Shown here: positions 1 to 57,482 of the stretch, piece by piece
Position numbering within the stretch: position 1 is the first letter of the stretch
Layout of the letters: each line of letters begins with the position of its first letter
Virus record (IMG/VR): IMGVR_UViG_3300036820_000010
Location: 1 to 64,000 of that record
Source of the DNA: a virus
Reading direction: 5' to 3' (one strand)
Length of the DNA: 64,000 nucleotides
Made by a program: the position numbers and the translations under genes
The notes under the pieces: generated by a model
Seen by the model: the letters and a program-made list of their open reading frames with translations, nothing else
Database searches by the model: none
What the model was told of the DNA's origin: nothing

Positions 1-325
1 GTACGGTCTGGTCCGGCTTGTCGGTACGGTCTGGTGTGGATTGTCGGACAGGTCTGGTCTGGATAGTCGGAGAGGTTTGGGAGGGCGAGGTATGTCAGAT
101 GAGGTCTAGAATGGATTGTCGGGGAGATCTGGCGAGGATTGTCGGTGAGGTATGGGCTGTCGGACAGGCTTGGATTGTCGAGAGGGGAGGTGAGGCTTGT
201 CGGGAGGTCTGGGCTGGAAGGTCGGGGAGGCATGGATTGTCAGAAAGGTTCTAGACAGGCTTGTCGGTGCGGCTTGGATTGTCGGTGGGGTATGGAGTGT
301 CGGTGAGGTCTGGATTGTCAGAAAG
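1..325 (+). repeat. G/T-rich degenerate tandem repeat array
   Basis: About 15 imperfect copies of a unit close to GGATTGTCGGTGAGG follow one another every 17-26 bases. The TGTCGG or TGTCAG cores lie near 19, 42, 65, 93, 117, 140, 159, 175, 195, 219, 236, 259, 276, 296 and 314. The strand is strongly G/T-rich and poor in C runs. The array starts at the window edge, so it may be longer. It lies downstream of a minus-strand gene and I see no credible protein in it; the only plus-strand reading frame (18-254) is low-complexity repeat translation. Unit length and divergence rule out a CRISPR array. It could be a binding-site cluster, a G-rich replication or packaging element, or recombinational debris. 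Confidence 0.8.
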
Positions 326-343
326 GCAGACTCTTCTTTGTCT

Positions 344-4022: not shown

Positions 4023-4087
4023 GAATATAGTATAACACAGGAAAAAGTTCTTCGCGTGATCGAGTCTTTTCCTGTATAATCATAGAC
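4023..4087. promoter_or_regulatory. Divergent promoter pair
   Basis: On the minus strand an extended -10 TGTTATACT (box 4034-4029) feeds the gene starting at 4022. On the plus strand TATAAT (4075-4080) feeds the gene at 4088 after 7 nt (catagac). Both carry TTTTCCTG just upstream of the -10 box, facing each other, as if one regulator or one sigma factor reads both. Confidence 0.7.
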
Positions 4088-4510
4088 ATGGGAACACCTA
4101 CCCAACTTGGAAAGGCAGACTTGATCCCGGACTACGTCCTGCGCCGGATTAGACCCGACAACAGGGTCCAAGCCTTGATCGAGTTCATGGCCAAGGCCGC
4201 CTGGAGGCCGAAATCCGGACCTATCGTCTTCCCATCCAAGATCGCGGCCATCAAGGCAGTCAGGGAATGGACGGGCAAGAACGATACCACAGGTGCTTAC
4301 GATCTCAAGGAGGCGAGAAACTTCGTCGAGAAGCATTGGGCACGAGTCGAGGCAGGTTTGGGTCGAGATGTCCATACCGGGTCTTCCTGGAGTCTACCCG
4401 GAAGATCTCATCTGGGAGTACAGAGAAAACCAGGACAAATCCTCAGGCTTGGTCTTGAGTACTCCCTTCGAGGGGCCTCACTTGACCATATCGGAGAGGA
4501 TTCCTGCTGA
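4088..4510 (+). CDS. First IPDY-motif protein; probable frame break near its 3' end
   Basis: 140 residues as read, leaderless from the TATAAT at 4075. LIPDYVLRR occurs at residues 12-20, the motif that starts most genes downstream. Residues 21-90 look like genuine protein (RVQALIEFMAKAAWRPK, VFPSKIAAIKAVREW, YDLKEARNFVEKHW). After about residue 93 the sequence looks unlike coding, while the frame one base ahead (4368-4610) looks like real protein. Either two genes overlap by 143 nt or a frameshift (programmed, mutational or sequencing) joins them. Function unknown. Confidence 0.6.
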   Translation: MGTPTQLGKADLIPDYVLRRIRPDNRVQALIEFMAKAAWRPKSGPIVFPSKIAAIKAVREWTGKNDTTGAYDLKEARNFVEKHWARVEAGLGRDVHTGSSWSLPGRSHLGVQRKPGQILRLGLEYSLRGASLDHIGEDSC

Positions 4511-4610
4511 CCTAGTCATCAAGATGAAAGAAGACCTTCGATTCGCTAAATTGGCCTTGATGCAGAGGGTACGCCTTCTCTTGTATCGGTTGACCTATGT
4601 TGACCTATGA
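4368..4610 (+). CDS. Overlapping or frameshifted continuation of the 4088 gene
   Basis: 80 residues from ATG (MSIPGLPGVYPEDLIWEYRE...), read in the +1 frame relative to 4088-4510. Composition is protein-like, ending in a helical segment (LVIKMKEDLRFAKLALMQRV). The stop overlaps the next ATG (ATGA at 4607). There is no good ribosome site before 4368, which favours a fused product over a separate gene. Function unknown. Confidence 0.5.
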   Translation: MSIPGLPGVYPEDLIWEYRENQDKSSGLVLSTPFEGPHLTISERIPADLVIKMKEDLRFAKLALMQRVRLLLYRLTYVDL

Positions 4611-4858
4611 TCCCTGATTACATCCTCAACGCCAACCAAGACCAAGACCAAGTCCCGAATCCCCCAGAAACCGAAGAAGGCGACTGGTGGGCCTGGTACC
4701 GCAGGTCCCGCCATACTAGGGTATGGACCCTCATCGGGGTCTACTCTTCTGAGTTAGTAGCTCAGGGAGCAGTCAAAACTTACCTCGACACCACCAGGGA
4801 CCCTTCCCAGTACTCTATCCGCGTCCTCAAGGCGGGAGTCAGGCCCAATGATTCCTGA
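4607..4858 (+). CDS. IPDY-tag small protein (MIPDYIL)
   Basis: 83 residues; starts ATGA-coupled to the gene upstream and overlaps the next by 11 nt. After the tag comes an acidic Pro-rich linker, then WWAWYRRSRHTRVWTLIGVY, which reads like a short beta-rich domain, and a helical end. There are no Cys clusters, unlike most tag family members. Function unknown. Confidence 0.75.
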   Translation: MIPDYILNANQDQDQVPNPPETEEGDWWAWYRRSRHTRVWTLIGVYSSELVAQGAVKTYLDTTRDPSQYSIRVLKAGVRPNDS

Positions 4859-5171
4859 CTACATCCTCAACTCGAGTTCTAAGAATACCCCCTGCACGGA
4901 CTCACATCACTTAGAGAATCACCCGGACACTGTCTTCGTGGGTGCCAGACTCCACTCATTCCAGGCCCAATTTCCTGAAGTCGACCATGCCGTCCTATTC
5001 ACCTGCTCTAACTGCAAGTACGCGAGACGAATAATCTACAACCACCTGAGAGAAACCCTCTACTGCGAGATCTACACTTGGCATTTGGGGCCCAAACCCA
5101 GATGGGTTTGGGCAGTCGTCAAAGATACACTCCACATCTCAAAGGCCAAGGCAGTGAGGATCCCTGAGTAA
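4848..5171 (+). CDS. IPDY-tag small Cys protein, paralogue A
   Basis: 107 residues starting MIPDYILN. The core EVDHAVLFTCSNCKYARRIIYN contains one CxxC, with other Cys and His residues before it (CTDSHHLENH), consistent with a zinc ribbon. It is clearly paralogous to the next gene, which shares EVDHAVLFTCPNCKY. Part of the coupled tag array. Confidence 0.8.
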   Translation: MIPDYILNSSSKNTPCTDSHHLENHPDTVFVGARLHSFQAQFPEVDHAVLFTCSNCKYARRIIYNHLRETLYCEIYTWHLGPKPRWVWAVVKDTLHISKAKAVRIPE

Positions 5172-5175
5172 AACT

Positions 5176-5502
5176 ATGATTCCTGACTACTTGTTCCACC
5201 CCGGAGAAGAAAGCAAGGCTTGCACCATCCATTCTTTAGTCTGTCAACCTGACGCTCTACTCACTGGAAGACTCCTGCACAATCCCGAACAGAATTCTCC
5301 CCCGCATGAGGTAGATCATGCTGTCTTGTTCACTTGTCCAAACTGTAAGTACATGAAACGAGTAGTCTTTAATCCTGACGCCCAACCCCTCTACGTCGAG
5401 GAATTCACCTGGTCATTCAAACAACTCAAGTGGATCTGGGTCGTAAGCCTAGACCTCATCGCCCTGAGCAGAGAAGAGTTTAGGGGAGGGGAAAGTCCAT
5501 GA
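5176..5502 (+). CDS. IPDY-tag small Cys protein, paralogue B
   Basis: 108 residues starting MIPDYLFH. It aligns with the gene at 4848 across its whole length (CTIHSLVCQPD versus CTDSHHLENHPD; EVDHAVLFTC.NCKY; W-rich C-terminal strand). This is a recent tandem duplication inside the array with strong divergence outside the Cys core. Overlaps the next start by 4 nt. Confidence 0.8.
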   Translation: MIPDYLFHPGEESKACTIHSLVCQPDALLTGRLLHNPEQNSPPHEVDHAVLFTCPNCKYMKRVVFNPDAQPLYVEEFTWSFKQLKWIWVVSLDLIALSREEFRGGESP

Positions 5503-5810
5503 CCATCCCTGGGTATGTCTTCAAGCACCAGTGTAGGTGTGCTGGCTGTGACCCAAGACTAGATCCCAATGGACCCAGGCTTGGCCCAAGGCACTTTGCG
5601 GTTCGCTTCGGGGATCATATTCTCCAGGCTTGTTTAGACGGTGAGCCGATCGTGAACTGCTATGAGTTGCACACTGACTTAGAAGTGGGTTGGCTGATCA
5701 ACCTTCCTGCTCACCGCTGTTCCAATTGTGGTCTGGGTGCGTGTTGCAGCATGGTTCAAGGCAAATTCAGTGTGGAGGCCGGGATTCCTGGTTCAGGGGT
5801 CAAGGCATGA
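5499..5810 (+). CDS. IPDY-tag variant (MTIPGYVFK) Cys-rich protein
   Basis: 103 residues. The tag has Gly in place of Asp. Two Cys groups are visible: CRCAGC at residues 11-16 and CSNCGLGACC near 79-88, which could form a zinc ribbon. Starts ATGA-coupled at 5499 and ends coupled to 5807. Function unknown. Confidence 0.75.
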   Translation: MTIPGYVFKHQCRCAGCDPRLDPNGPRLGPRHFAVRFGDHILQACLDGEPIVNCYELHTDLEVGWLINLPAHRCSNCGLGACCSMVQGKFSVEAGIPGSGVKA

Positions 5811-6310
5811 TTCCTGACTACCTGTTCAAACCTTTAGAACCCGAGGAACTTCTAGGCACTGAGTACGTCACTGAAGGCAAGACCAGAAGTCCCCAAAGGA
5901 TAAAGAAGGTAATCAATTTAGTCCCAGAACTTGGCGCTCGCCATCGAGTTGAGACAGCAGTGAGGATATTCTATTTACCTCTAGATATCAGTTGGGCAGT
6001 AGACGCCTTACTTGACTTCTCCAAAACCTGTATGTCCGAGGCAGTAGGAGTTCTGGCCAGGACTAACTTAGACCCAAGTGAGAAAGACAGGATCTATGAC
6101 CTGGCTGCAGTCGAGTACAAGGCAGCCAAGGACCTAGTTAAGGAACTAGAAACTTCAGGTTGGCCAACCAATCAGGCCGCGGACCTGCTCCTGACCCAGA
6201 TCATGCTCCGACGACTCTTGACTTGGATCCTAGATCTGATCGCGCAGACCCAAATCAGAATCCATGATGCCCACATGCCCCAGGAGGAAGCTGACAATGG
6301 AGATTCCTGA
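5807..6310 (+). CDS. IPDY-tag helical protein
   Basis: 167 residues from the ATG that overlaps the previous stop (ATGA). The longer in-frame start at 5690 runs through the upstream gene and is rejected. MIPDYLFKPLEPEE is followed by an almost wholly helical protein (SWAVDALLDFSKTCMSEAVG, AVEYKAAKDLVKELE, LLLTQIMLRRLLTWILDLIA). Longest member of the tag family and without Cys clusters, which suggests the tag is independent of the domain it is attached to. Confidence 0.75.
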   Translation: MIPDYLFKPLEPEELLGTEYVTEGKTRSPQRIKKVINLVPELGARHRVETAVRIFYLPLDISWAVDALLDFSKTCMSEAVGVLARTNLDPSEKDRIYDLAAVEYKAAKDLVKELETSGWPTNQAADLLLTQIMLRRLLTWILDLIAQTQIRIHDAHMPQEEADNGDS

Positions 6311-6482
6311 CTACATCTTCAAGGAATTTCTGAGAGTAGACCCTTGTACTCACCCCTTTAGAAGAACAGTAGGAGATCCTAGGAGTATTGCTCCCTGGAA
6401 GTTCCTCGTCTGTTCTCAGTGCGGGGCCCGAGTTCACTGGAGTGAGAAGGGAAAGAAGTGGGTAAAGGTCAGAAGTCTGTAA
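6297..6482 (+). CDS. IPDY-tag small zinc-ribbon-like protein
   Basis: 61 residues from ATG (MEIPDYIFKEF). The AGGAGG inside the previous gene sits 9 nt upstream and fixes this start over the longer frame from 6264. C-x-H near residue 17 and CSQCG near 40 suggest a single zinc site; the C-terminus is basic (EKGKKWVKVR). Confidence 0.75.
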   Translation: MEIPDYIFKEFLRVDPCTHPFRRTVGDPRSIAPWKFLVCSQCGARVHWSEKGKKWVKVRSL

Positions 6483-6745
6483 CGGTTCCTGACTATGTCT
6501 TCTGGACTAGTCTTCCCTGTGATCAGCACATCTTGGAGCAAGGCCTGACTCTAGGGATCACAGAGGTTGATTTCCTATACCTGATGGAACCGAAACTCAA
6601 AACCTTAAGGCCAACCCACTTCAAGACATCTAGGTGTACGCAGTGCGACCACAGGTTCTGGGAGTTCCTGAGGTTTGGACAAGTAATCGTCGTCCTAGAA
6701 GAAAACTGTGAAAACTTTGAACTCTTGTGGTCCATTGATTCCTGA
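6458..6745 (+). CDS. VPDY-tag small protein
   Basis: 95 residues from GTG, overlapping the previous gene by 25 nt. The tag is displaced to residues 10-15 (TVPDYVFW). A CTQCDHRFWEFLRF motif with an earlier Cys (LPCDQH) suggests a zinc-ribbon-like fold. No closer start codon precedes the tag, so the nine-residue extension is probably real. Confidence 0.65.
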   Translation: MGKGQKSVTVPDYVFWTSLPCDQHILEQGLTLGITEVDFLYLMEPKLKTLRPTHFKTSRCTQCDHRFWEFLRFGQVIVVLEENCENFELLWSIDS

Positions 6746-6757
6746 AGTAATTCGTAC

Positions 6758-6769
6758 TATAATCATTGC
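6758..6769 (+). promoter_or_regulatory. Internal leaderless promoter of the tag array
   Basis: TATAAT at 6758-6763 is followed by six bases and ATG at 6770. It lies in a short gap, one of the few places in the array where genes do not overlap, and should re-initiate transcription of the second half of the array. Confidence 0.7.
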
Positions 6770-6934
6770 ATGGTACCCGAGTACGTCTTGAAGCGCAAGA
6801 AGTGCGCCCACGACGCAGTCGACTTCGTCCCTCTAACTCCGCAGTCACCTGCGCTAGATGGACAGTACCGCTGCCGGGACTGTAAAGAACTCATGGTCAT
6901 GGAACCCTCGGGCAAGTGGACCCCATATGAGTGA
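6770..6934 (+). CDS. VPEY-tag 54-residue zinc-ribbon-like protein
   Basis: Leaderless ORF beginning MVPEYVLKRKKCAHDAV. Cys at 12 with His at 14, then CRDCK near residues 35-39, gives a compact C-x-H / CxxC ribbon. The stop overlaps the next start (ATGAGTGA). Supported by promoter, tag and array position. Confidence 0.75.
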   Translation: MVPEYVLKRKKCAHDAVDFVPLTPQSPALDGQYRCRDCKELMVMEPSGKWTPYE

Positions 6935-7145
6935 CATCCCCGACTACATCTTCCGCAAGAAGACTATTCCCCCTGACGAGTGCTCCCACCTGCGTGTCGA
7001 GCAGGAAGTAGTCAAGGCCCAAAACGGAGAGAAAAGGGTGGAGTTCATCTGCCAGGGTTGTGGGCGCCGGGTCAAACCCGGGGGATGGGTTTACCGGGAA
7101 TCTTCTGGAGTCCAGGACTACTCAAACAGGTGGGTAATCTACTGA
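6927..7145 (+). CDS. IPDY-tag zinc-ribbon-like protein
   Basis: 72 residues from ATG (MSDIPDYIFRKK), overlapping the previous stop. CSHLRVEQEV...CQGCGRRVKPGGW gives a C-x-H followed by CxxC with a basic knuckle, typical of a zinc ribbon. It ends TGATG-coupled to the next gene. Confidence 0.78.
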   Translation: MSDIPDYIFRKKTIPPDECSHLRVEQEVVKAQNGEKRVEFICQGCGRRVKPGGWVYRESSGVQDYSNRWVIY

Positions 7146-7396
7146 TGATTCCTGACTACCTATTCAAGAAAAGGAAGGAGGAGTCCCCTCCCGACTCCTG
7201 CCCTCATCGGAGGGTCAAGAAAGTAATCTTTGTACTACCTCCTGACAAGTCAGGCAAAGAATGTGCTGCCTATGAGTACAAATGCGAGTACTGCGGGAAC
7301 TTCCTGAAGCCTAGTCTCACCGAGAACGGTTGGGAGGCCTACGATCCCGGGTATCCCCGAGGTTCTAAAGAAGTCAAAGTCGGGTTCATCCCATGA
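7145..7396 (+). CDS. IPDY-tag zinc-ribbon-like protein
   Basis: 83 residues starting MIPDYLFKKRKEE. CPHRRVKKVIF, then about 30 residues later CEYCGNFLKP; the same C-x-H plus CxxC layout as its upstream neighbour, so the two are probably paralogues. Coupled at both ends by overlapping start and stop codons. Confidence 0.78.
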   Translation: MIPDYLFKKRKEESPPDSCPHRRVKKVIFVLPPDKSGKECAAYEYKCEYCGNFLKPSLTENGWEAYDPGYPRGSKEVKVGFIP

Positions 7397-7506
7397 TCTG
7401 GACCTTCGGGACAGGAGTCTATAACGGATTCTTAGACTCTGCTTTAGGCCTAAGCCTAGTTCTCTTAGGAGTACGTACCTGGAACAAGAAAAGAAAGAAG
7501 AAATGA
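7393..7506 (+). CDS. 37-residue membrane peptide within the tag array
   Basis: ATG overlaps the previous stop (CCATGA). MIWTFGTGVYNGFLDSALGL is followed by SLVLLGVRTW and a basic tail (NKKRKKK): one membrane helix with positive-inside topology. It lacks the IPDY tag and ends coupled to the next tag gene. Confidence 0.6.
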   Translation: MIWTFGTGVYNGFLDSALGLSLVLLGVRTWNKKRKKK

Positions 7507-7631
7507 TCCCTGACTACATTCTCAGAAATTCTAGGATCCCGGAATGTCTCCACCCCAAACGAGCAGTTCAAAGATACGATGGGTACTTTTTTTTGTTCCG
7601 TAAGGTAGTAAAAGGTCAACAATACCCATGA
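7503..7631 (+). CDS. IPDY-tag 42-residue protein
   Basis: MIPDYILRNSRIPECLHPKR, then a Phe-rich stretch encoded by a run of eight T (about 7589-7596). It starts in the ATGA of the previous gene. The polyT tract could cause polymerase slippage or sequencing error, so the C-terminus may be longer in another frame. Confidence 0.6.
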   Translation: MIPDYILRNSRIPECLHPKRAVQRYDGYFFLFRKVVKGQQYP

Positions 7632-7640
7632 AGACTCTCA

Positions 7641-7826
7641 ATGGATGAGAGCGTAATTCCCGACTACCTGTTCACGAACCGCAAACCCGAAGAATGGGTA
7701 GAAGACGGGCAGGTGTACTGTGCCCATACCCATAGATACAGGATTGGGGAAAGAATGCTCTGTCTACAATGCGGAGAATCTTTACACAAAGACGGGAAGA
7801 GGTGGAAAGCAGCCGGTGATCCCTGA
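7641..7826 (+). CDS. IPDY-tag zinc-ribbon-like protein
   Basis: 61 residues (MDESVIPDYLFTNRK). CAHTHRYRIGERMLCLQCGES gives C-x-H/H followed by CxxC, the compact ribbon of this array, with a basic end. It overlaps the next GTG start. Confidence 0.75.
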   Translation: MDESVIPDYLFTNRKPEEWVEDGQVYCAHTHRYRIGERMLCLQCGESLHKDGKRWKAAGDP

Positions 7827-8130
7827 CTATGTCTTCAAGAGGAGAGACCCAGACCAGGAGACTTTAGTCCAGTGGACAAGAGGTGTGCCTCATGGGAGTA
7901 CTATCTGGGAAGTCCTGCCTCCCCCACTGAACTGCCCAGAGTTCTGGGCAATTAGTGCTAAGTGGAAGAACTCAGAGGGAAACAACTCTGAGTACACTCG
8001 ATATATCGACTATCCCTACTTGTTTGGGTGGCAAAACCTCACCGATCTCCTGGGTGAGATCTCTTCTGAGGTTGCTAGAAATCAGCAGATCTCGGAACAC
8101 ACTCCAGTCTGGCCCCTCAACCCGAGTTAA
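7816..8130 (+). CDS. IPDY-tag protein, last of the array
   Basis: 104 residues from GTG (MIPDYVFKRRDPDQE); the longer frame from 7720 is inside the upstream gene. It is Trp/Tyr-rich with no Cys cluster except one Cys, and has a helical C-terminus (LTDLLGEISSEVARN). It closes the train of tag genes. Function unknown. Confidence 0.72.
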   Translation: MIPDYVFKRRDPDQETLVQWTRGVPHGSTIWEVLPPPLNCPEFWAISAKWKNSEGNNSEYTRYIDYPYLFGWQNLTDLLGEISSEVARNQQISEHTPVWPLNPS

Positions 8131-9566: not shown

Positions 9567-9875
9567 TCATGAGTGCAGGACCTTATGCAGGTACTCTTCA
9601 TCTAAGTTACTACAGGAAGGCATCAAGTAAAGGAAGAGACCAGAAGTGCCTGAGGGGTGCCCCGGAGGCAAGAAAGTCGTCCCCAAGACCCTCTTGAGTA
9701 CAGTAACTAACTCCTCGTAGGGGGACAACCTGATCGCCTCGACGATCGCCTCATTCAAGCCTGCCTCGAACCCAACCTCATACCCTGCCTCGTACCCGAG
9801 CTCAGAAGCGATGCGTTCTTTCTTGGACCCGTTCTTGGACACTTCCCTGGTATACCAAGTGTCCACGGGCCTCAC
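9567..9875 (-). CDS. GYExG-repeat small protein
   Basis: 102 residues. A helical N-terminal stretch has the repeated pattern GYEAGYEVGFEAGLNEAI, then LSPYEELVTVLKRVLG. Similar G-Y/F-x-x-G helices followed by a short helical domain occur at 42762-43046 and 53862-54143, suggesting a dispersed paralogue family. Start overlaps the stop of the upstream gene. Function unknown. Confidence 0.65.
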   Translation of the reverse strand: MRPVDTWYTREVSKNGSKKERIASELGYEAGYEVGFEAGLNEAIVEAIRLSPYEELVTVLKRVLGTTFLPPGHPSGTSGLFLYLMPSCSNLDEEYLHKVLHS

Positions 9876-10258
9876 CTCAAACGCCCAGGTTTGATCTGGT
9901 CCTCGGACAACCTCATGCGGTCCTGGCCCTGAGCCTCAAGTTCATCTTGATCGACTGTCTTCTCGACAATCTCTTCTGCCCACTCTCCAATAGACTTTTC
10001 TTCTACGCCTTCTGCGTTGTAGGGAAGTTCTCTGTTCCCTCCCGTCTTGGGATTCATCTTGCGCAAGGTTGGATGACCTAATCTCGACACCCAGAATTCC
10101 TGGGTTTCGGGCCCGCAGTCTCCGTCATTCCAGATCTTCCAGCCCTGTGCCTTGATGATCTTCTCCGCCTCTTCGCGAGAAGTTGCGACGACGTGGAACT
10201 CTACCCTTCGGGTGAGTTCACCTTGGAACAGTTTGAACTGGTAAGATTCGTCAGGCAT
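9872..10258 (-). CDS. Hypothetical protein
   Basis: 128 residues. The N-terminal 45 residues read as a small alpha/beta unit (YQFKLFQGELTRRVEFHVVATSREEAEKIIKAQGW), like domains that modify or mimic a ferredoxin-like fold. The C-terminal half is acidic and disordered. Transcribed with its neighbours from the promoter at 10817. Function unknown. Confidence 0.65.
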   Translation of the reverse strand: MPDESYQFKLFQGELTRRVEFHVVATSREEAEKIIKAQGWKIWNDGDCGPETQEFWVSRLGHPTLRKMNPKTGGNRELPYNAEGVEEKSIGEWAEEIVEKTVDQDELEAQGQDRMRLSEDQIKPGRLR

Positions 10259-10280
10259 GACCTTTCCCCTTTGAGAAACT

Positions 10281-10391
10281 TCACCACCCCCAACCTAGGG
10301 TAGCGTAGGTATACAGGATTATTCCTCCGACGATGGCGATAAAAGAGATCGCGACTACGAGGAGGATGATGTAGTTATCTTCTATGTCCAC
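10281..10391 (-). CDS. 36-residue membrane peptide
   Basis: GTG start overlapping the stop of the upstream gene, with AAGG 8 nt before it. One transmembrane helix (YIILLVVAISFIAIVGGIIL) is followed by a Trp-rich end (LGWGW). Fills the apparent gap between two annotated genes. Function unknown. Confidence 0.55.
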   Translation of the reverse strand: MDIEDNYIILLVVAISFIAIVGGIILYTYATLGWGW

Positions 10392-10667
10392 TCATTTGCC
10401 TTCGAAGGCACGAGGATGATCCTTCTCGGTCTCGACAATCCCACATCGCCAGCACTTGCGGAACTTAGATCCTGGGATCATCTTACCGTTCTGGCGCAGG
10501 ACGTCGTACAACCAGAGGTGATCCCCATTCCTGCACTTCAACCTACCAACTATATCCGTGATCTTGTGGAATACCTTGCCTAGTCCGAGTCTCATGACCC
10601 GATTGAAGATAGGCGGGAAACTCAGAGTAGCCATGACTACTGCAAAAATTGATAGGCGAGAAGTCAT
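10392..10667 (-). CDS. Hypothetical membrane-anchored zinc-ribbon protein
   Basis: 91 residues. A hydrophobic N-terminus (LSIFAVVMATLSFPPIF) may be a signal anchor. The rest carries C-R-N-G-D-H near residue 45 and FRKCWRCGIVETEKDH near 68, consistent with a zinc ribbon. Start overlaps the stop of the small gene upstream (ATGA). Confidence 0.65.
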   Translation of the reverse strand: MTSRLSIFAVVMATLSFPPIFNRVMRLGLGKVFHKITDIVGRLKCRNGDHLWLYDVLRQNGKMIPGSKFRKCWRCGIVETEKDHPRAFEGK

Positions 10668-10810
10668 CCTGCCTTTAAATCTCGCCTCACCCGCATCTTC
10701 TGCAGGTCTCTTGTTGATCGCGCGTGCATGCGCATTCCGAAGCGCTTCTTGGTAACCTTGCGGTCGCGCCTAGAGATTCGGTTGACCTCAGCGCTGATTT
10801 TGATGCCCAT
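10664..10810 (-). CDS. 48-residue basic protein, leaderless
   Basis: ATG lies exactly six bases after the -10 TATACT in the same module (TATACTATATTCATGGG) as at 4022. The product is strongly basic (ISRRDRKVTKKRFGMRMHARSTRDL) and could bind nucleic acid. It ends ATGA-coupled to the next gene. It is the first gene of the 10810-9567 operon. Confidence 0.7.
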   Translation of the reverse strand: MGIKISAEVNRISRRDRKVTKKRFGMRMHARSTRDLQKMRVRRDLKAG

Positions 10811-10902: not shown

Positions 10903-12324
10903 GTGGCCAACATCTTCAACCCCCCAGTCGCCCTGTACAAGAAGATCCGCCAACTGTGGGGTGGACAGGCTGCAGGAATTGGGGTCTTTTACTTAGGGGG
11001 AGGACCTGGAGGGGCCTATATCGGGCACTCCTGGGATTTCACTCGGATCGCGAACTCCGTCTACGGGAACCCGACCGGATTCCGCTGTGTCGAGGCGATC
11101 TCCTACAACTTCAGTCGGCCCCCGTGGACGATCTACCCCTCGATCTCCAACTGGCCGCACGCTGCCGAGCCTTCGCGCGCGATCACTGATCATCCCCTCC
11201 TGCAACTCCTCAACCACCCGAATCCCTCGACGTCAGGGACGATGATGCAGCGTCTGATGGCCCGGGACCTTGAACTCACGGGTAAGACCTTCTGGTTCAA
11301 GGAAGCCCCTAAACCGACCGAACGTAATCCCAAGCCTAAACCTACTGCCCTACGGAGGCTCCCGTCCCAACGGGTCACCGTAGTCGGCAACCAGGATGAC
11401 GAACTACTCGGCTTCGTCTACACCGACCGGGCAGGCAACCAGGTCCCGATCCTGCCTGAAAACCTACTGTATCTGCGCTTTCCTCATGTCGACCGGGTAT
11501 ACGACGGGATCGCTCCTGCTCTAGTCGCCGGCCTCCCGGCCGAGACAGACACTGCTGGATCCCAGTTCAACCGGGAGTTGCTTCGGAATGACACTGCACT
11601 CCCAGGTTACCTGGTCATCGACAACTTGAGTGTTTCTGAGTTCGCAGAATGGAAGAGTGAGTGGGAAACCCAGTCTCAACCCGGGAAGACTCGCTTTATC
11701 GGGGGCCAGAACTCTAAATACTTCAAAGTTGGGCAATCTAACCAAGAATTGACCTACTCTGAGCTCAGGTCGGATTCCCAAGACGACATTCTGAGAGGGT
11801 TTGGAGTCCCGCCTGCTGCAGCATTTAAGTTGACTCACGAAACTTATGCTAATGCTGCTGCAGAACAAGCAATGTTCATGCAGCAGGGAATCTTGCCCAA
11901 ATGGATCCTCGCCTGTGACGAGATGACACTTCAGTTCGCCCCTGACTTTCCTGAGACCTCGATCAAGGTCGCTCTTGACCTGACCGGAATCGACGAGTTG
12001 CAGGATAGCAGGGACGCGGTCGTCGAGCGAGGGGTCAAACTCATGCTCGTCCAGGCCAAGACGATCAACGAGTTTCGAGCCGAACAAGGCCTGCCTCCAG
12101 TTGCCTGGGGTGATACACCTCAAGTTCCACTGCAGCAAATGTCTGCTGTACCGATGGAACCTCCGGGTTCGGAGGGGACTCCTGGGAACTCGCCTGCCCC
12201 AGAGTCTCCTCCTAACCCGAAGCAAGTTCCTCCCCCAGAAGACAACTCATCCCGGTACAGGCTCTTGGGTCCACCTGGGGATACGGCTAGTCGTCTCCCC
12301 CAGAATTCGTCCAATGGTCGGTAG
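10903..12324 (+). CDS. Portal protein (HK97-like)
   Basis: 473 residues from GTG. The fold pattern of the HK97/lambda-type portal family is visible: YGNPTGFRCVEAISYNFSRPPW near residue 50, then HPLLQLLNHPNPSTSG, and the long helical crown region EWKSEWETQSQPGKTRFIGGQ, then LRSDSQDDILRGFGVPPAAAF with the AAEQAMFMQQGILP helix. The portal forms the dodecameric ring at one capsid vertex through which DNA enters and leaves. First gene of the late morphogenesis operon; the terminase normally just upstream is absent from the window. Confidence 0.92.
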   Translation: MANIFNPPVALYKKIRQLWGGQAAGIGVFYLGGGPGGAYIGHSWDFTRIANSVYGNPTGFRCVEAISYNFSRPPWTIYPSISNWPHAAEPSRAITDHPLLQLLNHPNPSTSGTMMQRLMARDLELTGKTFWFKEAPKPTERNPKPKPTALRRLPSQRVTVVGNQDDELLGFVYTDRAGNQVPILPENLLYLRFPHVDRVYDGIAPALVAGLPAETDTAGSQFNRELLRNDTALPGYLVIDNLSVSEFAEWKSEWETQSQPGKTRFIGGQNSKYFKVGQSNQELTYSELRSDSQDDILRGFGVPPAAAFKLTHETYANAAAEQAMFMQQGILPKWILACDEMTLQFAPDFPETSIKVALDLTGIDELQDSRDAVVERGVKLMLVQAKTINEFRAEQGLPPVAWGDTPQVPLQQMSAVPMEPPGSEGTPGNSPAPESPPNPKQVPPPEDNSSRYRLLGPPGDTASRLPQNSSNGR

Positions 12325-12351
12325 AAACCTGATAAATTGAGGAGACAGACG

Positions 12352-14001
12352 ATGGGACGGTACACTGCCCATGTAGGGCACCTCGAGGTTATCAGGGGTG
12401 TAGTCAAGGCAACTCAGGTAGCCAAGGTCAACGGGAAGTACCAGTTCTCTGGGGTAGCGACTTCAATCGGAAACACCGATCGCATGGGCAGGGTGTTCTT
12501 GCCTGGAGCCTTCGCCTCACTCCCACCCCAAGTCCCACTACTCGCCTACCACGACGACACTCGCCCGATCGGAATCTCTGCCCTCAAGAAGCAGGGGGAC
12601 CAGGTTCTGCACTCCTCGACACTCAGTAACGGCCCGGCAGCCGCTGAACTCGAGGAACTCATCCATGATGGAGCAGTCCCTGCTACTTCGATCGGATGGT
12701 TGTCTGACCAGCGCTACAACGGGTCGGGAGCACTCGAGCGTGCAGATCCTGACTTCGCTGAACAGTGCTGGGCGATGGGTATCGAGAAGGCAGAAGACAT
12801 CACCTACTTCGGGAAGGGTGAGATCCTAGAGAACTCGATCACCCCGATTCCGGCTAACCCGCAGGCACTGATCTCAGTTGCCTCTCTTCTAGGCACTGAC
12901 CGGGGGTACATCGAGTCGATGCGCGAAGTCGCGAGGGAGTCTGATCCCCACTTCTTCTTCATGTCGAGCGATGAAGTCGCTCCCCCAGGATCTGACCTAG
13001 GCAGTACTGCCTACGAGCCTGAGGCCTACTCCAAGGGACCGGGCGAGAACGTCAAGTGCCCGCAGTGCCAGAAGTACAACGAACCCGATGCTTCTTTCTG
13101 CGACCAGTGTGGTCTGAAGTTGGTCGGGCGGGACGACGTCCAAACTTCTGTTGTCGAGGGAATGGACATCTCTGACCGGTCACTCTTGGATCTGGTCGGG
13201 GGAGCAGCGACCATCCTCGCTGATGTCATGCGGATCCGCGAGGACGCGTCGATCCCTGACTACGTGACTCGACAGCAGATGATGGCCGAGTCGGTCGCCC
13301 AACTGGGTGACCTCGCTGCCGTCTGGTCGAGCGCCTACGTCAACAACCTCCCTGACAGCGCTTTCGCCTACATCACGCCTGGGGGAAAGGCAGACTCTTC
13401 TGGAAAGACCACTCCCCGCTCGTTGCGGCACTTCCCCCACCACGATGACACAGGGAAACCCGATGAGGCGCATGTGCGCAACGCACTCGCCCGCATCCCC
13501 CAGTCGAACGTCCCGGAATCGGCCAAGGCATCTGCTCTCGCCCATATCGAGAAGCACGCGAAGGCGATGGGCATCGACGTGTCTGACAAGAAGGCAGCCG
13601 CTGCCCAGCCTGATGCTCCTGGCAATACCGACGATGACGCACCAGTCAACGCAGGTCCGATGCCGACCAAGCCTGCGACCGCGGTCAAGCATCTGATGAC
13701 CGCGAAACCTAGTGGTCATGGGATGGCTCGCGCTGACATCCCTGACAACCCAGTCAAGGCTCACAACGCGATGCACGGTGAAGACGGATCGAAGGAGAAG
13801 GACGGACACGTCCATTCCAAGGCCCCGGCTGCCTCAGATATCGATCCCGACCTCGTTCTTTCAGAACTCGAGGCACTCACCCAGCGAGGCCCAGTCGGGA
13901 ACCAACCATCAGTATGGTCAGAGGTCCTAGCTGCTGAGCCCAGGTTCAAGAATGTCAGGTCGGGTGTCCAGCCTGAGTGGGGTCTCGTCGACCTAGGCTA
14001 A
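12352..14001 (+). CDS. Prohead protease with long C-terminal extension
   Basis: 549 residues from ATG with GGAG 8 nt upstream. Residues about 15-190 match the HK97 prohead protease: FSGVATSIGNTDRMGRVFLPGAF, LLAYHDDTRPIG with the catalytic His, and PATSIGWL with the catalytic Ser. The remaining 350 residues are unusual: a zinc-ribbon (CPQCQKYNEPDASFCDQCG) near 236-254, SIPDYVTRQQ near 302, and a helical segment that recalls C-terminal scaffold-like domains (ALARIPQSNVPESAKASALAHIEKHAKAMG). The extension probably acts as a scaffold removed in maturation, although a cargo-binding role cannot be excluded. Confidence 0.85.
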   Translation: MGRYTAHVGHLEVIRGVVKATQVAKVNGKYQFSGVATSIGNTDRMGRVFLPGAFASLPPQVPLLAYHDDTRPIGISALKKQGDQVLHSSTLSNGPAAAELEELIHDGAVPATSIGWLSDQRYNGSGALERADPDFAEQCWAMGIEKAEDITYFGKGEILENSITPIPANPQALISVASLLGTDRGYIESMREVARESDPHFFFMSSDEVAPPGSDLGSTAYEPEAYSKGPGENVKCPQCQKYNEPDASFCDQCGLKLVGRDDVQTSVVEGMDISDRSLLDLVGGAATILADVMRIREDASIPDYVTRQQMMAESVAQLGDLAAVWSSAYVNNLPDSAFAYITPGGKADSSGKTTPRSLRHFPHHDDTGKPDEAHVRNALARIPQSNVPESAKASALAHIEKHAKAMGIDVSDKKAAAAQPDAPGNTDDDAPVNAGPMPTKPATAVKHLMTAKPSGHGMARADIPDNPVKAHNAMHGEDGSKEKDGHVHSKAPAASDIDPDLVLSELEALTQRGPVGNQPSVWSEVLAAEPRFKNVRSGVQPEWGLVDLG

Positions 14002-14069: not shown

Positions 14070-15470
14070 ATGGAGCCTTGGCAGGAGAAAGCTGAGAAGG
14101 CGAGGACCTTGATCGAGCAGATCAAGATCGCCAAGAACAACGTCAGTTCTGCCGAGGAAGCGATGAAGCTTCGGAAGCAGTTCGACGACGCCCGCAAACT
14201 CGCTCAGGAAGCCCACACCGAGAGAACTTCTCTAGAGAAGGCTCGCCTCGACGAGGTCCTAGGTGAGTTCGAGAACGAGAAGGCTTCGGAGGAGAAGAGG
14301 ACTGCTTCTTCTGAGATGTACCGCATCGCTCCTCCTACCTCTGACGGGCGGTCGATGACTGCTTCGGGTCGCATGCAGACCCTGGGTGAAAGGATGCGGG
14401 CTGACAAGGCTCGGGTCATGTACACCGAGAGGGCAGTCAAGTCGATCCCCGACCTTCACCAGGCTGCTCTCGCTGAGGGAACTGGTTCGAGTGGTGGATA
14501 CCTGGTCGTTCCTCAGTACCTCCAGGACCTGTTCGCTGAAACTCGTCGCCAGGGAAACGCCCTTCGCGCCTATGGGTGGATGAACGTCCATCCAGTCGAG
14601 TCGAACCAGGTCTACATCCCTAAGGGATCGGGTTCTGCTTCGGTCACCATGATCGGTGAAAACGTGCAGAAGCCCAGCGCAGACCAGTCCTACGCCCAGA
14701 TCTCAGTGGCCATCTTCACTGCGGCCGGCATCTCGAAGCAGTCGAAGCAGTTGGTCATGGACTCGTCCCCGACCGTCCTTGACCTGTCCACCCGAGAACT
14801 CGGAACTCTCTTGGGCAACTTGGAAGAGGGCAAGGTCATCAATGGGTCTGGGTCCTCAGAACCCTTGGGCATCCTGGGCACTTCTGGTCTGGCCATCACC
14901 CCGCAGACGGCCAGTGATTCGGTTGTCGGAACGGTTGCTGCCTCGGCTACGCAGCAGGATGTGATCGATCAGATCCTGAACGCGGTCGTGGCCGTCACCT
15001 CGTCCTACTACGCTCCCCCGAACGGGTGTCTGATGCACCCCCGGCGCCTAGGGTGGCTCCTGCAGGGTAAGGACACGAACAACAACTACCTGTTCAACCG
15101 GAACGGAACCTTCCGCCAGCCCAACTTCGATCCCGCGATGCAGACGGTCAACTCGATGTCGACCGCGATCAACACCCCTCCGTACGACCTCTTCGGCCTT
15201 CCGATCGGGACCTCGACCAACATCCCGACCGACTCCAACTACGGAGTCTCGGGCAACTCCGACCAGGACGTGATCATCGTCGGCGCCTGGCAGGAGGCCC
15301 ACTGGTTCCAGCGTCAGGACGTGACCGTTGACACGACCGACGTTGCGGGTGAGTCCTGGGAGTACAACCAGGTCTGGATCCGCGCTGAGGAGAGGTTCGG
15401 ATTCACTGCAGCCCGATACCCGAACGCCTTCGCCGTCGTCTCGGGTAAGGGCCTTTCTGCTCCTGCTTAA
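14070..15470 (+). CDS. Major capsid protein (HK97 fold)
   Basis: 466 residues. A charged coiled-coil N-terminus (residues 1-110, delta-domain-like scaffold) is followed by the capsid domain: GTGSSGGYLVVPQYLQDLFAETRR is the typical N-arm/E-loop entry, QVYIPKGSGSASVTMIGE the E-loop, and SKQSKQLVMDSSPTVLDL with LEEGKVINGSGSSEPLGILG the spine helix and P-domain. The N-terminal coiled coil is probably cut off by the protease encoded just upstream. Highest-expressed virion protein by analogy. Confidence 0.95.
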   Translation: MEPWQEKAEKARTLIEQIKIAKNNVSSAEEAMKLRKQFDDARKLAQEAHTERTSLEKARLDEVLGEFENEKASEEKRTASSEMYRIAPPTSDGRSMTASGRMQTLGERMRADKARVMYTERAVKSIPDLHQAALAEGTGSSGGYLVVPQYLQDLFAETRRQGNALRAYGWMNVHPVESNQVYIPKGSGSASVTMIGENVQKPSADQSYAQISVAIFTAAGISKQSKQLVMDSSPTVLDLSTRELGTLLGNLEEGKVINGSGSSEPLGILGTSGLAITPQTASDSVVGTVAASATQQDVIDQILNAVVAVTSSYYAPPNGCLMHPRRLGWLLQGKDTNNNYLFNRNGTFRQPNFDPAMQTVNSMSTAINTPPYDLFGLPIGTSTNIPTDSNYGVSGNSDQDVIIVGAWQEAHWFQRQDVTVDTTDVAGESWEYNQVWIRAEERFGFTAARYPNAFAVVSGKGLSAPA

Positions 15471-36483: not shown

Positions 36484-36753
36484 TCAGATTAAAGGCCTCA
36501 GAGATATCTCTAGGATTTCTCGGTCAAACTCCATGTGCAGGACCTTCCCCGGGTAGTCGATGTAGACAGTCTTGAGTTCAGATCCTTCCGGTACCCCTTC
36601 GATAACTTGGGCACTGATCACACTGCCTTGAGTCAACATCCCAACCAAGAAATCGATCGAGACCAGGACTTCATTAGAACGGGGACCCTTAAAACCTGCG
36701 AACGGGGCGGTCTTGGGTTTCGGTCTCCTGACGATGTAGTCCGGAACTCGCAC
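36484..36753 (-). CDS. VPDY-tag protein in the DNA-modification operon
   Basis: 89 residues starting MRVPDYIVRRPKPKTAPF, the same N-terminal tag as the 4-8 kb array but on the other strand, 30 kb away and on an unrelated beta-rich body (EVLVSIDFLVGMLTQGSVIS, KTVYIDYPGKVLHMEFDREI). Its start overlaps the DpdA-like gene by 65 nt. Function unknown. Confidence 0.7.
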   Translation of the reverse strand: MRVPDYIVRRPKPKTAPFAGFKGPRSNEVLVSIDFLVGMLTQGSVISAQVIEGVPEGSELKTVYIDYPGKVLHMEFDREILEISLRPLI

Positions 36754-37552
36754 CGGGACCTCCTTGGGCTAGAGTAGCAAAAACAGACGCATTTGCCTTG
36801 GCCAAGGCCAGTTCCTCCTCGGTCAGGACCCAAGAAAAGTAATTTAGAGGACGAGTCGGGTACTCTGGAACCTTACCCCCTGCCTTGAGCCTGATCCCTG
36901 CCTTTGCATAGCAGAAGGGCTTTGCACTGTCAGTCGATCGAATCCACGGAAACTCACTAGCCATGTCGCCCAAGACCCAGAGTTGCCTCCCCCAGCCTAG
37001 AAGGTGCACCTCGACACCATCATTTTCGACCAAAGGCAAGATGTCATCGCGGAGAATCTTAGGAACCCCACCTTCCCATATCTCGTAGTCCTTAGACACT
37101 CCGACGGTCGGGGGTTGGGTGAAGATCTCAGGGTAGACCTTGTGATGTCGGGCCCACTGCATCATCAAACCGAAGAGGCAGGACTTGTAGTCCTTGTAAT
37201 CCTCGCCCTGCGGGACCAGCATCAACTTCGGGACAGGAAGTTCTGTCTTCGCGGCAAAAGTAAAGAACTCCTTAGCCTTGGACAGGGTCTCCATGCTCTT
37301 GAACAAGTGATCAGGAACAACTACCTCGTTGGACTTGACTTCACTCGCATGCTTGAGTAGATTAGTTGCCTGGGCCCCTGCAGTAAATTCGTGGGCACTG
37401 TTGTCAAGTATTAAGTAAGCCCCCTCTTTCTTCTCCCGCATGTAGTGATCCCGGTACGCCTTGCGGTTCATCATGTGATCGAGTAGAAGGTGGTACTTAG
37501 AGTGCCCGAATCGATCTAGATGGGCAGTAGGCGGGATCAGAGCAACGAACAT
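36689..37552 (-). CDS. dpdA: DpdA-like guanine transglycosylase (DNA)
   Basis: 287 residues from ATG 37552 with GGAG 11 nt upstream; an ATG at 37573 would overlap the neighbour. YLILDNSAHEF is the Asp-containing active-site loop of the queuine/DpdA transglycosylase barrel, EVVVPDHLFKSMETL the following helix, LPVPKLMLVPQGEDYKDYKS the substrate strand and VEVHLLGWGRQLWV the G-L-G-like loop near the end. In DNA-modifying phages, DpdA exchanges guanine in DNA for preQ0 or preQ1 base. Context (folE, queC, queD, queE and a queF-like gene in the same operon) supports this rather than a tRNA role. Confidence 0.85.
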   Translation of the reverse strand: MFVALIPPTAHLDRFGHSKYHLLLDHMMNRKAYRDHYMREKKEGAYLILDNSAHEFTAGAQATNLLKHASEVKSNEVVVPDHLFKSMETLSKAKEFFTFAAKTELPVPKLMLVPQGEDYKDYKSCLFGLMMQWARHHKVYPEIFTQPPTVGVSKDYEIWEGGVPKILRDDILPLVENDGVEVHLLGWGRQLWVLGDMASEFPWIRSTDSAKPFCYAKAGIRLKAGGKVPEYPTRPLNYFSWVLTEEELALAKANASVFATLAQGGPGASSGLHRQETETQDRPVRRF

Positions 37553-37553
37553 T

Positions 37554-38357
37554 CTAGGAGCGTCTCCATACATATAAGGTCGTCGTCGGGAACTCGCGGT
37601 CGTAGGTGATGTAGTTGGTAAATTGTCCGATCAGTTTCGGGAGAACCGTTTCGATGCCCAGGTACTCGGCCCAATGATTATAGCGGATGAGGAGTTGCAG
37701 ATCGGATTTGAGGGCCTTGACTGTCGAGGCGTGGTCGACATCGTGAAACTCACACTGCATCTTAGTCGGGAAGTTCCAGCCTCGCCCAAAAGGTTTCTTC
37801 ATGATCATGGTGTGCGGGTCACCTTCTGACCCCCCACCCGCGTAGTGCATAAAGGTAACCTGAGGCGCAGATGCGCACTCTAGGGGTTGCTTCGGCCACA
37901 GGGAGCACCCTTTACCTCCATTAGGCCTCTCTGCCGTCAGGTAGGGGCAAAACGGATAGGGACTCTGGTTGACCGAAACTATAGTACTCGCTTTCCCATT
38001 GACGATGATCTCACGCTCTTCCCAAGGCACTAACTTTTTCTTAGACTCTTCCATCTCCGCGAATTCTTCCGGGAGAAAGTCGAGAGTGACCGCGATCGCA
38101 CAGCAAGCGTGGCACCCATCGACGCAGACGAACTGCCGGAAGACAGAAGGTCCGATCCCAACCCATTCTGGAATCTTCTTCAAGACCGGCCTGTTCTTCT
38201 TACCCCAGTAGACAGGTTTCGGAGACAGGCAGGCCAACTGATGAGTCATCTTGAAAATCGAGTCGGGGTAGGTAGATGACGGATTGCGCTTCAGGCGAGA
38301 GTCGTGAGGATCTACATCGTCGAAGAACCCGGGCAGAGTCGGAAGTTCCTTCCTCAT
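37554..38357 (-). CDS. YkgJ-type Cys-cluster protein next to dpdA
   Basis: 267 residues. CVDGCHACCAIAVTLDFLPEEF near residues 78-99 and CPYL...GGKGCSLWPKQPLECASAP near 137-167 form the CxxxCxxCC plus distal Cys pattern of the YkgJ/CxxCxxCC metal-binding family. The C-terminal 100 residues are helical and family-independent. Its ATG overlaps the MazG-like stop, and it ends a few bases before dpdA, so it is a candidate tailoring enzyme acting on 7-deazaguanine. The function is unproven. Confidence 0.7.
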   Translation of the reverse strand: MRKELPTLPGFFDDVDPHDSRLKRNPSSTYPDSIFKMTHQLACLSPKPVYWGKKNRPVLKKIPEWVGIGPSVFRQFVCVDGCHACCAIAVTLDFLPEEFAEMEESKKKLVPWEEREIIVNGKASTIVSVNQSPYPFCPYLTAERPNGGKGCSLWPKQPLECASAPQVTFMHYAGGGSEGDPHTMIMKKPFGRGWNFPTKMQCEFHDVDHASTVKALKSDLQLLIRYNHWAEYLGIETVLPKLIGQFTNYITYDREFPTTTLYVWRRS

Positions 38358-49054: not shown

Positions 49055-49257
49055 CCGACTTCCCAGCCTAGAGCCTGCTCAGGGGATACTGCTGACTGCA
49101 CTCGAACTCCGGGATACCTAGCATTACGAGACTTTTTGTACTTCCGACGAATCTCATCCCCAACCTCTTTGCCTGAAGTAGCAGTTCGAAAGGGACCGAT
49201 CGGAGGAGACTCATGCCCCTCCTTATCCCAGATCATGGTCAAAACGTAGACGGTCAC
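49051..49257 (-). CDS. Small hypothetical protein
   Basis: 68 residues from GTG 49257, overlapping the VWA-gene stop (GGTGA) with GGAG 11 nt upstream; the frame from 49347 is inside that gene. VYVLTMIWDKEGHESPPIGP, then a basic stretch (RRKYKKSRNARYPGVRVQSA). Function unknown. Confidence 0.6.
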   Translation of the reverse strand: MTVYVLTMIWDKEGHESPPIGPFRTATSGKEVGDEIRRKYKKSRNARYPGVRVQSAVSPEQALGWEVG

Positions 49258-56252: not shown

Positions 56253-56310
56253 ATTTGAACTCCTGCCCTGGACTCGAGCGGGCTTCTCGCCGGGTTCCTT
56301 GATATCTATT

Positions 56311-56339
56311 ATTATAGGCACTCAGACACAGGAACGCAA
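56311..56339 (-). promoter_or_regulatory. Promoter of the MoxR operon
   Basis: -35 TTGCGT (56339-56334), 17-bp spacer, -10 TATAAT (56316-56311), inside TGAGTGCCTATAATAATAGAT. The leader to the ATG is about 50 nt. Confidence 0.8.
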
Positions 56340-57007: not shown

Positions 57008-57225
57008 CCTTGCTCCTTCGATGCGTTAATCCGATTCTTAACTGCTGCCGGAGGATGCCCGATATGGTACTTGTGGCAAAAACTGCAGGAATAAGGAATC
57101 AGACCTCCTCCCTGCCCGTTGTTCCTGATCGACTCTATGGCTGCTAGGGCTTCTTCATGGGTGTCGAACTGCCTCTTGCCTTGACACGCAGACCGACGGA
57201 GTCTTCGCTTCGATGACATATTCAC
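57004..57225 (-). CDS. Small Cys/His protein
   Basis: 73 residues from GTG 57225 (or ATG 57219). Basic N-terminus (SSKRRLRRSACQGKRQF) with FDTHEEALAAIESI helix and YSCSFCHKYHIGH, giving C..C..H..H zinc ligands; a common actinophage small-protein pattern (Y-x-C-x-F-C-x-x-Y-H-x-G-H). Probably nucleic-acid related. Confidence 0.7.
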   Translation of the reverse strand: MNMSSKRRLRRSACQGKRQFDTHEEALAAIESIRNNGQGGGLIPYSCSFCHKYHIGHPPAAVKNRINASKEQG

Positions 57226-57482
57226 TTTACTCCCGGCTTATTGATGACTTTTGAACTCAAAGTCCCCTGGATCGAAAACCTCCTGAGTTGGGAACTTTCA
57301 CCCCGAGGAACAGGAGAAGGCGAACCCGAGTAGAAGAACTCTATCTCAGCATCAACTGACTCGAGTTCAACCCAACTCCCATTCCCGAAGAAAACTTGGA
57401 CTTTAGTCAGAGGGTTCGAGAGTTCACTGAAGTCGTCCAGGGGTTCCTCCTGCCTGACCACATAGTCAGGAACAGAAATCAT
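57222..57482 (-). CDS. VPDY-tag small protein
   Basis: 86 residues from ATG 57482 (MISVPDYVVRQEEPLDDF), overlapping the upstream stop; the frame from 57542 is inside the upstream gene. Another distant copy of the N-terminal tag, on a beta-rich body (KVQVFFGNGSWVELESVDAE). Function unknown. Confidence 0.7.
   Translation of the reverse strand: MISVPDYVVRQEEPLDDFSELSNPLTKVQVFFGNGSWVELESVDAEIEFFYSGSPSPVPRGESSQLRRFSIQGTLSSKVINKPGVK

What the first reader, a model, noticed from the sequence alone, without database searches (positions are those of the whole stretch)
4088..8130. A shared N-terminal tag, [IV]-P-[DEG]-Y-[IVL]-[FLV], on about 15 unrelated small proteins in tandem
Fourteen coupled genes between 4.1 and 8.1 kb start with variants of M-I-P-D-Y-[IVL]-[FL], followed by bodies that differ: zinc-ribbon-like, helical, Trp-rich. 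Codons in the tag vary synonymously (ATT/ATC CCT/CCC GAC/GAT TAC/TAT), so selection looks to be on the peptide. A tag common to diverse cargo suggests a targeting, capsid-loading, degradation or partner-binding signal. I know of no described system with this array.
Basis: partly seen in the sequence, partly recalled or inferred. Interest (0 to 1): 0.87.

Follow-up and report, generated by a model that had tools for sequence, protein, structure and literature searches.

The report
Shared N-terminal peptide on phage proteins
An uncultured phage carries 16 small genes, 14 of them in one operon, whose proteins begin with nearly the same six-residue peptide (roughly I-P-D-Y-V-F) ahead of at least six different kinds of body; selection acts on the peptide, which probably docks all of them onto one still unknown partner.

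Summary
The tag is real. About 0.006 such genes are expected by chance. Three control phage regions show nothing like it. Base-level conservation falls to near zero on both sides of the tag and follows codons: codon 5 is random at base 1 and invariant T at base 2. So selection is on the peptide, not on a DNA or RNA element.

"Unrelated" is only partly right. Nine or ten of the 14 share a C-x-H...C-x-x-C zinc-ribbon body, with clear paralogue pairs. The tag also sits on about six other bodies, so it crosses fold boundaries. No Pfam, PHROG or NCBIfam family matches it. No second array turned up in IMG/VR or GTDB with the patterns I could scan, and the two nearest relatives' fragments show no tagged genes.

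Best reading: a short linear docking motif bringing diverse small effectors to one partner, probably early in infection. Main rivals: virion loading like the phage T4 capsid targeting sequence, or an inherited N-terminus of a fast-evolving paralogue family. The partner is not identified.

The parts
4075..4088 (+). promoter-like -10 TATAAT placed 7 nt before the ATG of the first tagged gene (leaderless start), divergent from a minus-strand TATACT/ATG start at 4034
4088..4510 (+). g01, tag IPDYVL at 4124 (residue 13); codon signal leaves this frame after about 4370
4368..4610 (+). probable overlapping untagged ORF (MSIPGLPGVYPEDL...), preferred frame by codon usage from about 4390 to 4560
4607..4858 (+). 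g02, MIPDYIL, Trp-rich body, no zinc ligands
4848..5171 (+). g03, MIPDYIL, C/H plus CxxC zinc-ribbon-like body, paralogue of g04
5176..5502 (+). g04, MIPDYLF, zinc-ribbon-like body, paralogue of g03 (41% identity)
5499..5810 (+). g05, MTIPGYVF, Cys-rich body (CxCxxC, CxxC)
5807..6310 (+). g06, MIPDYLF, 167 aa, helical body in a low-confidence model
6297..6482 (+). g07, MEIPDYIF, C-x-H / CxxC body
6458..6745 (+). g08, VPDYVF at 6485 (GTG start at 6458 likely), C-x-x-H / CxxC body
6758..6770 (+). second TATAATCAT promoter-like site, 6 nt before the ATG of g09 (leaderless)
6770..6934 (+). g09, MVPEYVL, C-x-H / CxxC body
6927..7145 (+). g10, MSDIPDYIF, C-x-H / CxxC body, paralogue of g11
7145..7396 (+). 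g11, MIPDYLF, C-x-H / CxxC body; AF2 model has a low-confidence tag and a beta ribbon
7393..7506 (+). untagged 37 aa ORF with one hydrophobic segment inside the array
7503..7631 (+). g12, MIPDYIL, short body that keeps C-x-H but lacks CxxC (half ribbon)
7641..7826 (+). g13, MDESVIPDYLF, C-x-H / CxxC body
7816..8130 (+). g14, VIPDYVF (GTG start), Trp/Tyr-rich body without zinc ligands
36484..36753 (-). gM1, VRVPDYIVRRPK, 89 aa, preceded by AAGGAGG, overlaps the end of the 36689-37573 gene
57222..57482 (-). gM2, MISVPDYVVRQ, 86 aa

Best explanation
The six-residue tag (plus a usually basic seventh residue) is a short linear docking motif at the N-terminus of a set of small phage proteins. All carriers bind one common partner through it, and their bodies, mostly small zinc ribbons but also helical and Trp-rich domains, do different jobs there. 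The array grew by tandem duplication of a tag-plus-zinc-ribbon gene and by capture of the tag by other small genes. Shown: the tag, its selection at the peptide level, its presence on about six or seven body types, and the paralogy among several of the zinc ribbons. Inferred: that the tag binds something, that the partner is shared, and that the proteins act inside the infected cell, probably early (host-type TATAAT promoters with leaderless starts at g01 and g09, and none of the tagged genes lies among the head and tail genes). The partner is not identified; host RNA polymerase or another central host complex is the likeliest class by analogy with other small zinc-binding phage regulators.
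For: 16 carriers against about 0.006 expected. Base conservation is confined to codons 1-7 of the tag, with codon periodicity, and codon 5 is random at base 1 but T at base 2 in all 16. The position varies from residue 2 to 13 and two carriers are distant and on the other strand, which fits a short linear motif. Across 16 proteins the tag is the most conserved element, while zinc ligands are in only 9-10. The AF2 models of g11 (alignment of 8) and g06 leave the tag at low confidence with only a 3-residue helical turn, as expected for a motif that orders on binding. TATAATCAT occurs 6 times against 0.03 expected, at g01, g09 and elsewhere. Small zinc-finger phage proteins that bind RNA polymerase are known (TraR / lambda Orf73, PMC9239242).
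Against: No partner, no expression data and no relative with the same array were found. Low pLDDT with thin alignments (8 and 1 sequences) is weak evidence of disorder. Most carriers are one paralogous family, so part of the conservation is shared descent; the ATT/CCT codon excess fits some recent copying. Early expression is inferred from promoter-like strings only.
Confidence: 0.45

Rival explanations
1. Virion loading: the tag is a capsid-targeting signal that takes the small proteins into the prohead, to be injected with the DNA, as the capsid targeting sequence does for the diverse internal proteins of T-even phages.
For: [quoted passage not shown] This phage also encodes a 7-deazaguanine pathway (QueC, FolE, QueE, QueD) and so may carry modified DNA, the setting in which T4 uses internal proteins. 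The prohead protease (12337-14001) carries an internal IPDYV and a zinc ribbon.
Against: The operon is separated from the portal/capsid operon by minus-strand genes and has its own promoter-like start. No conserved cleavage site follows the tag. The protease of relative L043 lacks the IPDYV, and one such match is within chance. No separate scaffold core gene was recognised.
Confidence: 0.2
2. Inherited N-terminus: all carriers descend from one tag-plus-zinc-ribbon gene and the tag is a structural cap of the domain, not a docking signal; fast evolution erased the resemblance of the other bodies.
For: Clear paralogues and a shared C-x-H/CxxC plan in 9-10 of 14; tandem, same strand, coupled genes; mild codon bias compatible with copying.
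Against: The tag is kept on a helical 167 aa protein (g06), on g02, g14 and on two distant genes without zinc ligands; its distance from the start and from the first Cys varies; the models do not pack it on the ribbon with confidence.
Confidence: 0.18
3. Stability or quality-control signal: the tag is an N-terminal degron or protease-adaptor handle that gives all these proteins a short life or delivers them to a protease.
For: N-terminal position, short hydrophobic-acidic-aromatic-hydrophobic pattern followed by basic residues, diverse cargo.
Confidence: 0.07
4. DNA or RNA element: the conserved stretch is a recombination, regulatory or stop-start translation-coupling sequence that overlaps the starts, and the peptide is a by-product.
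For: Many genes overlap as ATGA or end in the ccTGAc of the next tag; ATT and CCT are over-used.
Against: Conservation follows codon positions, ends at the tag edges, is carried by third-base-variable codons, and occurs away from start codons and on distant genes. The only near matches outside tags are three with 3 mismatches.
Confidence: 0.05

Closest known systems
Capsid targeting sequence (CTS) of T-even phage internal proteins (PMC3012670)
   Same: Short shared N-terminal peptide on otherwise diverse small phage proteins
   Different: CTS carriers enter the prohead core (PMC3012670) and, from my own knowledge, the CTS is removed by the gp21 protease. Here no cleavage motif, no virion data, a different sequence, operon apart from head genes, and no PHROG match to internal proteins
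Encapsulin targeting peptides (PMC10960027)
   Same: Short peptide that sends different cargo to an HK97-fold shell
   Different: From my own knowledge usually C-terminal and Gly/Leu-rich, with one or two cargo proteins per shell; no sequence resemblance; the shell here is a phage capsid
TraR / lambda Orf73 small zinc-finger RNA polymerase regulators (PMC9239242)
   Same: Tiny zinc-binding phage proteins, the best-known function for such a body
   Different: No TraR/DksA Pfam match and no shared tag in that family; here up to ten different ribbons share the tag
Start-associated sequences of Cluster K mycobacteriophages (PMC3203893)
   Same: Repeated conserved sequence at the starts of many small phage genes
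   Different: From my own knowledge those are untranslated DNA repeats upstream of the start; here the conserved part is coding and selected as peptide

Membership tests
T-even internal proteins with capsid targeting sequence | short conserved N-terminal peptide on diverse small proteins | tested here: met
   16 carriers, about 6-7 body types
T-even internal proteins with capsid targeting sequence | sequence homology to internal proteins | tested here: not met
   no PHROG or Pfam match of tagged proteins to any internal protein family
T-even internal proteins with capsid targeting sequence | packaged in the virion and cleaved by the prohead protease | not testable with these tools
   no virion data; no conserved cleavage site seen by eye after the tag
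TraR/DksA zinc-finger family | zf-dskA_TraR domain | tested here: not met
   no such Pfam match at E<1 for any tagged protein
TraR/DksA zinc-finger family | small zinc-binding protein acting on host RNA polymerase | not testable with these tools
   CxH/CxxC pattern present in 9-10; binding not testable
Encapsulin targeting peptide | HK97-type shell protein encoded nearby | tested here: met
   major capsid protein 14070-15470, homologous to mycobacteriophage major capsid proteins
Encapsulin targeting peptide | terminal Gly/Leu-rich targeting peptide | tested here: not met
   tag sequence is IPDY[IVL]F and N-terminal
DNA-level start element (start-associated sequences type) | conservation of bases independent of codon position and outside the coding frame | tested here: not met
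   codon-periodic conservation confined to the tag

The most novel reading that the evidence does not exclude
A phage-made 'adaptor code': a new short linear motif on a modular array of small, evolving effectors, all plugged onto one essential host (or phage) hub, so that new effectors are gained simply by adding the tag.
Probability: 0.3. Interest if true: 0.85.

Novelty: new variant of a known kind. Interest (0 to 1): 0.6.

Why it matters
If the tag docks all these proteins to one partner, it is a ready-made bait: one peptide would identify the host hub this phage attacks and at once give a function class to 16 otherwise anonymous genes. It would also show that phages outside the T4 group use one short peptide to manage a set of diverse small proteins, and would offer a search key for similar arrays.

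Tried and rejected
Relatives through portal, capsid (single and aligned), DNA polymerase and the g03/g04 pair in IMG/VR: only the same phage (L009) and two distant fragments (L010, L043) without tagged genes. Capsid alignment in GTDB genomes: none. Start-anchored tag patterns in IMG/VR (three codon variants) and GTDB: 30, 11, 59 and 2 stretches; none holds an array. The nearest are single small Cys-rich proteins (L012), an HNH-like protein (L047), an endonuclease-VII-like protein (L085/L086/L098) and a repeated VPEYL/IPDYLL pair (L068, L077, L081, L087, L099). These patterns cover only MI or M[IVM] directly at the start and certain codons, so an array with other offsets or codons could be missed. 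tblastn of g11 in named phages: nothing credible. Foldseek of the g11 model: no match with E<0.001. Literature search for the motif: none. Resemblance of the tag to a sliding-clamp binding motif (QLxLF, from memory) was considered and dropped because the Gln is absent. Internal PDY strings in the protease (13252) and VPDHLF in 36689-37573 were judged chance or family-specific.
Full report
Setting. The window is bases 1-64000 of an 84,580-base virus record of IMG/VR. It is a tailed phage with an HK97-type head module (portal 10903-12324, prohead protease 12337-14001, capsid 14070-15470, distantly similar to mycobacteriophage capsids at 24-28% identity). It also has a replication/recombination module with a family A polymerase, a Sak4-like annealing protein, exonuclease and primase-helicase and a preQ0 pathway (QueC, FolE, QueE, QueD). 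No DNA-level relative exists among 50,697 named phages for the first 24 kb.

The observation. A six-frame search finds [ILV]P[DEG]Y[ILV][FLV] near the start of 14 ORFs between 4088 and 8130, exactly as reported. It also finds two more on the minus strand, gM1 (36753-36484, with an AAGGAGG ahead of its GTG start) and gM2 (57482-57222). The remaining 20 kb have none. With the residue frequencies of 35 control proteins from the same phage, 0.0055 genes would carry the motif in the first 13 residues among about 130 genes. An unbiased search for start-proximal 6-mers shared between ORFs puts this motif first (11 ORFs in one star cluster). Three 50-kb control stretches of other phages reach 4-7, and the 6-7 case consists of low-complexity words. 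Whole-gene codon-usage scores are best in the tagged frame for every tagged gene, though g12 is a near tie and g05 and g13 score slightly below zero (sliding view).

Peptide or nucleic acid. I lined up the 16 tags on codon 1. Information is near zero upstream of the start codon, rises to 1.86 bits (the maximum for 16 rows) at fixed bases inside the tag, above all at second codon positions, and is near zero again after codon 7 except for one isolated column. Codon 5 (I, V or L) has almost no information at base 1 and full information at base 2, which is the signature of selection for a hydrophobic residue. The tag is not fixed to the start codon (residue 2 to 13). A DNA or RNA element is therefore not the cause. 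Synonymous choice is slightly less varied than expected because ATT and CCT are over-used (P about 0.002 for all tag positions, 0.01 for the third bases of P, D, Y). Three upstream genes end in the ccTGAc of the following tag, and recent copying probably explains the rest (inference).

Bodies. They are less diverse than the finding says. g03 and g04 are paralogues (41% over 101 aa), g10 and g11 as well (37% over 62 aa), and g07, g10 and g13 are weakly similar. Aligned together they share tag, C-x(1-3)-H, C-x-x-C and a late Trp. g05, g08 and g09 carry related Cys/His pairs and g12 keeps only the first half. g02, g06 (helical), g14, gM1, gM2 and probably g01 lack the pattern. Pfam, PHROGs and NCBIfam give no family for any tagged protein; the only hints are zinc-ribbon models below threshold for g11 and a PHROG of unknown function for g13. 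AF2 on the g11 alignment gives a beta ribbon (blocks at pLDDT 74-82) with residues 1-20 at 49-57. Single-sequence AF2 on g06 is poor (mean 56) with the first ten residues at 34. These are consistent with a free tail but do not prove it.

Context. The operon starts with TATAATCAT, with the ATG of g01 7 nt after the TATAAT, and a second such site precedes g09. TATAATCAT occurs six times in the window (0.03 expected). The operon diverges from a minus-strand gene at 4022 and is separated from the portal operon by minus-strand ORFs at 9567-10810. gM1 and gM2 also lie in non-structural regions. Early or middle expression is therefore more likely than late expression (inference).

Relatives. The phage family is almost unrepresented: L009 is the same phage, and L010 and L043 are fragments with 50-61% identical head proteins and no tagged genes in the parts held. 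Start-anchored tag patterns found only single occurrences elsewhere, several in Cys-rich nuclease-like proteins. So the test 'body kept, tag lost' in relatives could not be made.

Mechanism. A peptide kept in 16 proteins, on about six or seven body types, near but not at the N-terminus, with a hydrophobic-Pro-acidic-Tyr-hydrophobic-hydrophobic-basic pattern, is best explained as a short docking motif for a common partner. The partner is unknown. By analogy with small zinc-binding phage proteins that act on host RNA polymerase (PMC9239242), a central host complex is the likeliest class. The strongest rival is virion loading as in T-even internal proteins (PMC3012670), which is attractive because both kinds of phage are set up to modify DNA, but nothing places these proteins in the virion. 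A structural, inherited N-terminus of one fast-evolving family cannot be excluded.

Verdict. Function is inferred, not shown.

Noticed in passing
window 4075, 6758, 10822(-), 4034(-), 50612(-), 57782(-); record 81.8-82.9 kb: Many leaderless-type starts: TATAAT or TATACT 5-9 nt before an ATG, often continuing ATGGGAA(C). Three near-identical copies (TTGACATTTCCTGTCGAATCGTCTATATTTATTGCATGGGAACA) lie in the last 3 kb of the record, so several proteins start MGT or MGN for a DNA-level reason.
   Followed up: partly
window 36.5-42.8 kb, minus strand: preQ0 pathway cluster (QueC, FolE, QueE, QueD) suggesting 7-deazaguanine-modified phage DNA; the neighbour 36689-37573 may be the transglycosylase (by eye only, one PHROG hit of unknown function).
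   Followed up: partly
record 72.7-75.4 kb (L041:9205-11919, minus): Terminase large subunit of 904 aa that appears to contain an intein or similar insert (KELSVDTPMLTSKGW...LVPTHN).
   Followed up: no
window 12337-14001: Prohead protease with an inserted zinc ribbon (residues 240-261) and an internal IPDYV at about residue 306; absent from the protease of relative L043.
   Followed up: partly
window 4088-4610: Codon signal switches from the g01 frame to the +1 frame near 4370, where ORF 4368-4610 begins inside g01: either a long gene overlap or a frameshift in the sequence.
   Followed up: partly
window 1-340: G-rich degenerate repeat (GGTCTGGATTGTCGG-like units) with no obvious gene.
   Followed up: no
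window 49254-50600 and 55140-56321, minus: Phage ATPase of PHROG 1297 and a protein of PHROG 1314 that looks metallopeptidase/vWA-like by eye, a MoxR-vWA-like pair; gM2 lies just upstream of the ATPase.
   Followed up: no
L085, L086, L098, L047: Endonuclease-VII-like and HNH-like small proteins in other phages start MIPDYVLK... or MVPDYLF... just before a CxxC, an independent single occurrence of a similar start.
   Followed up: partly
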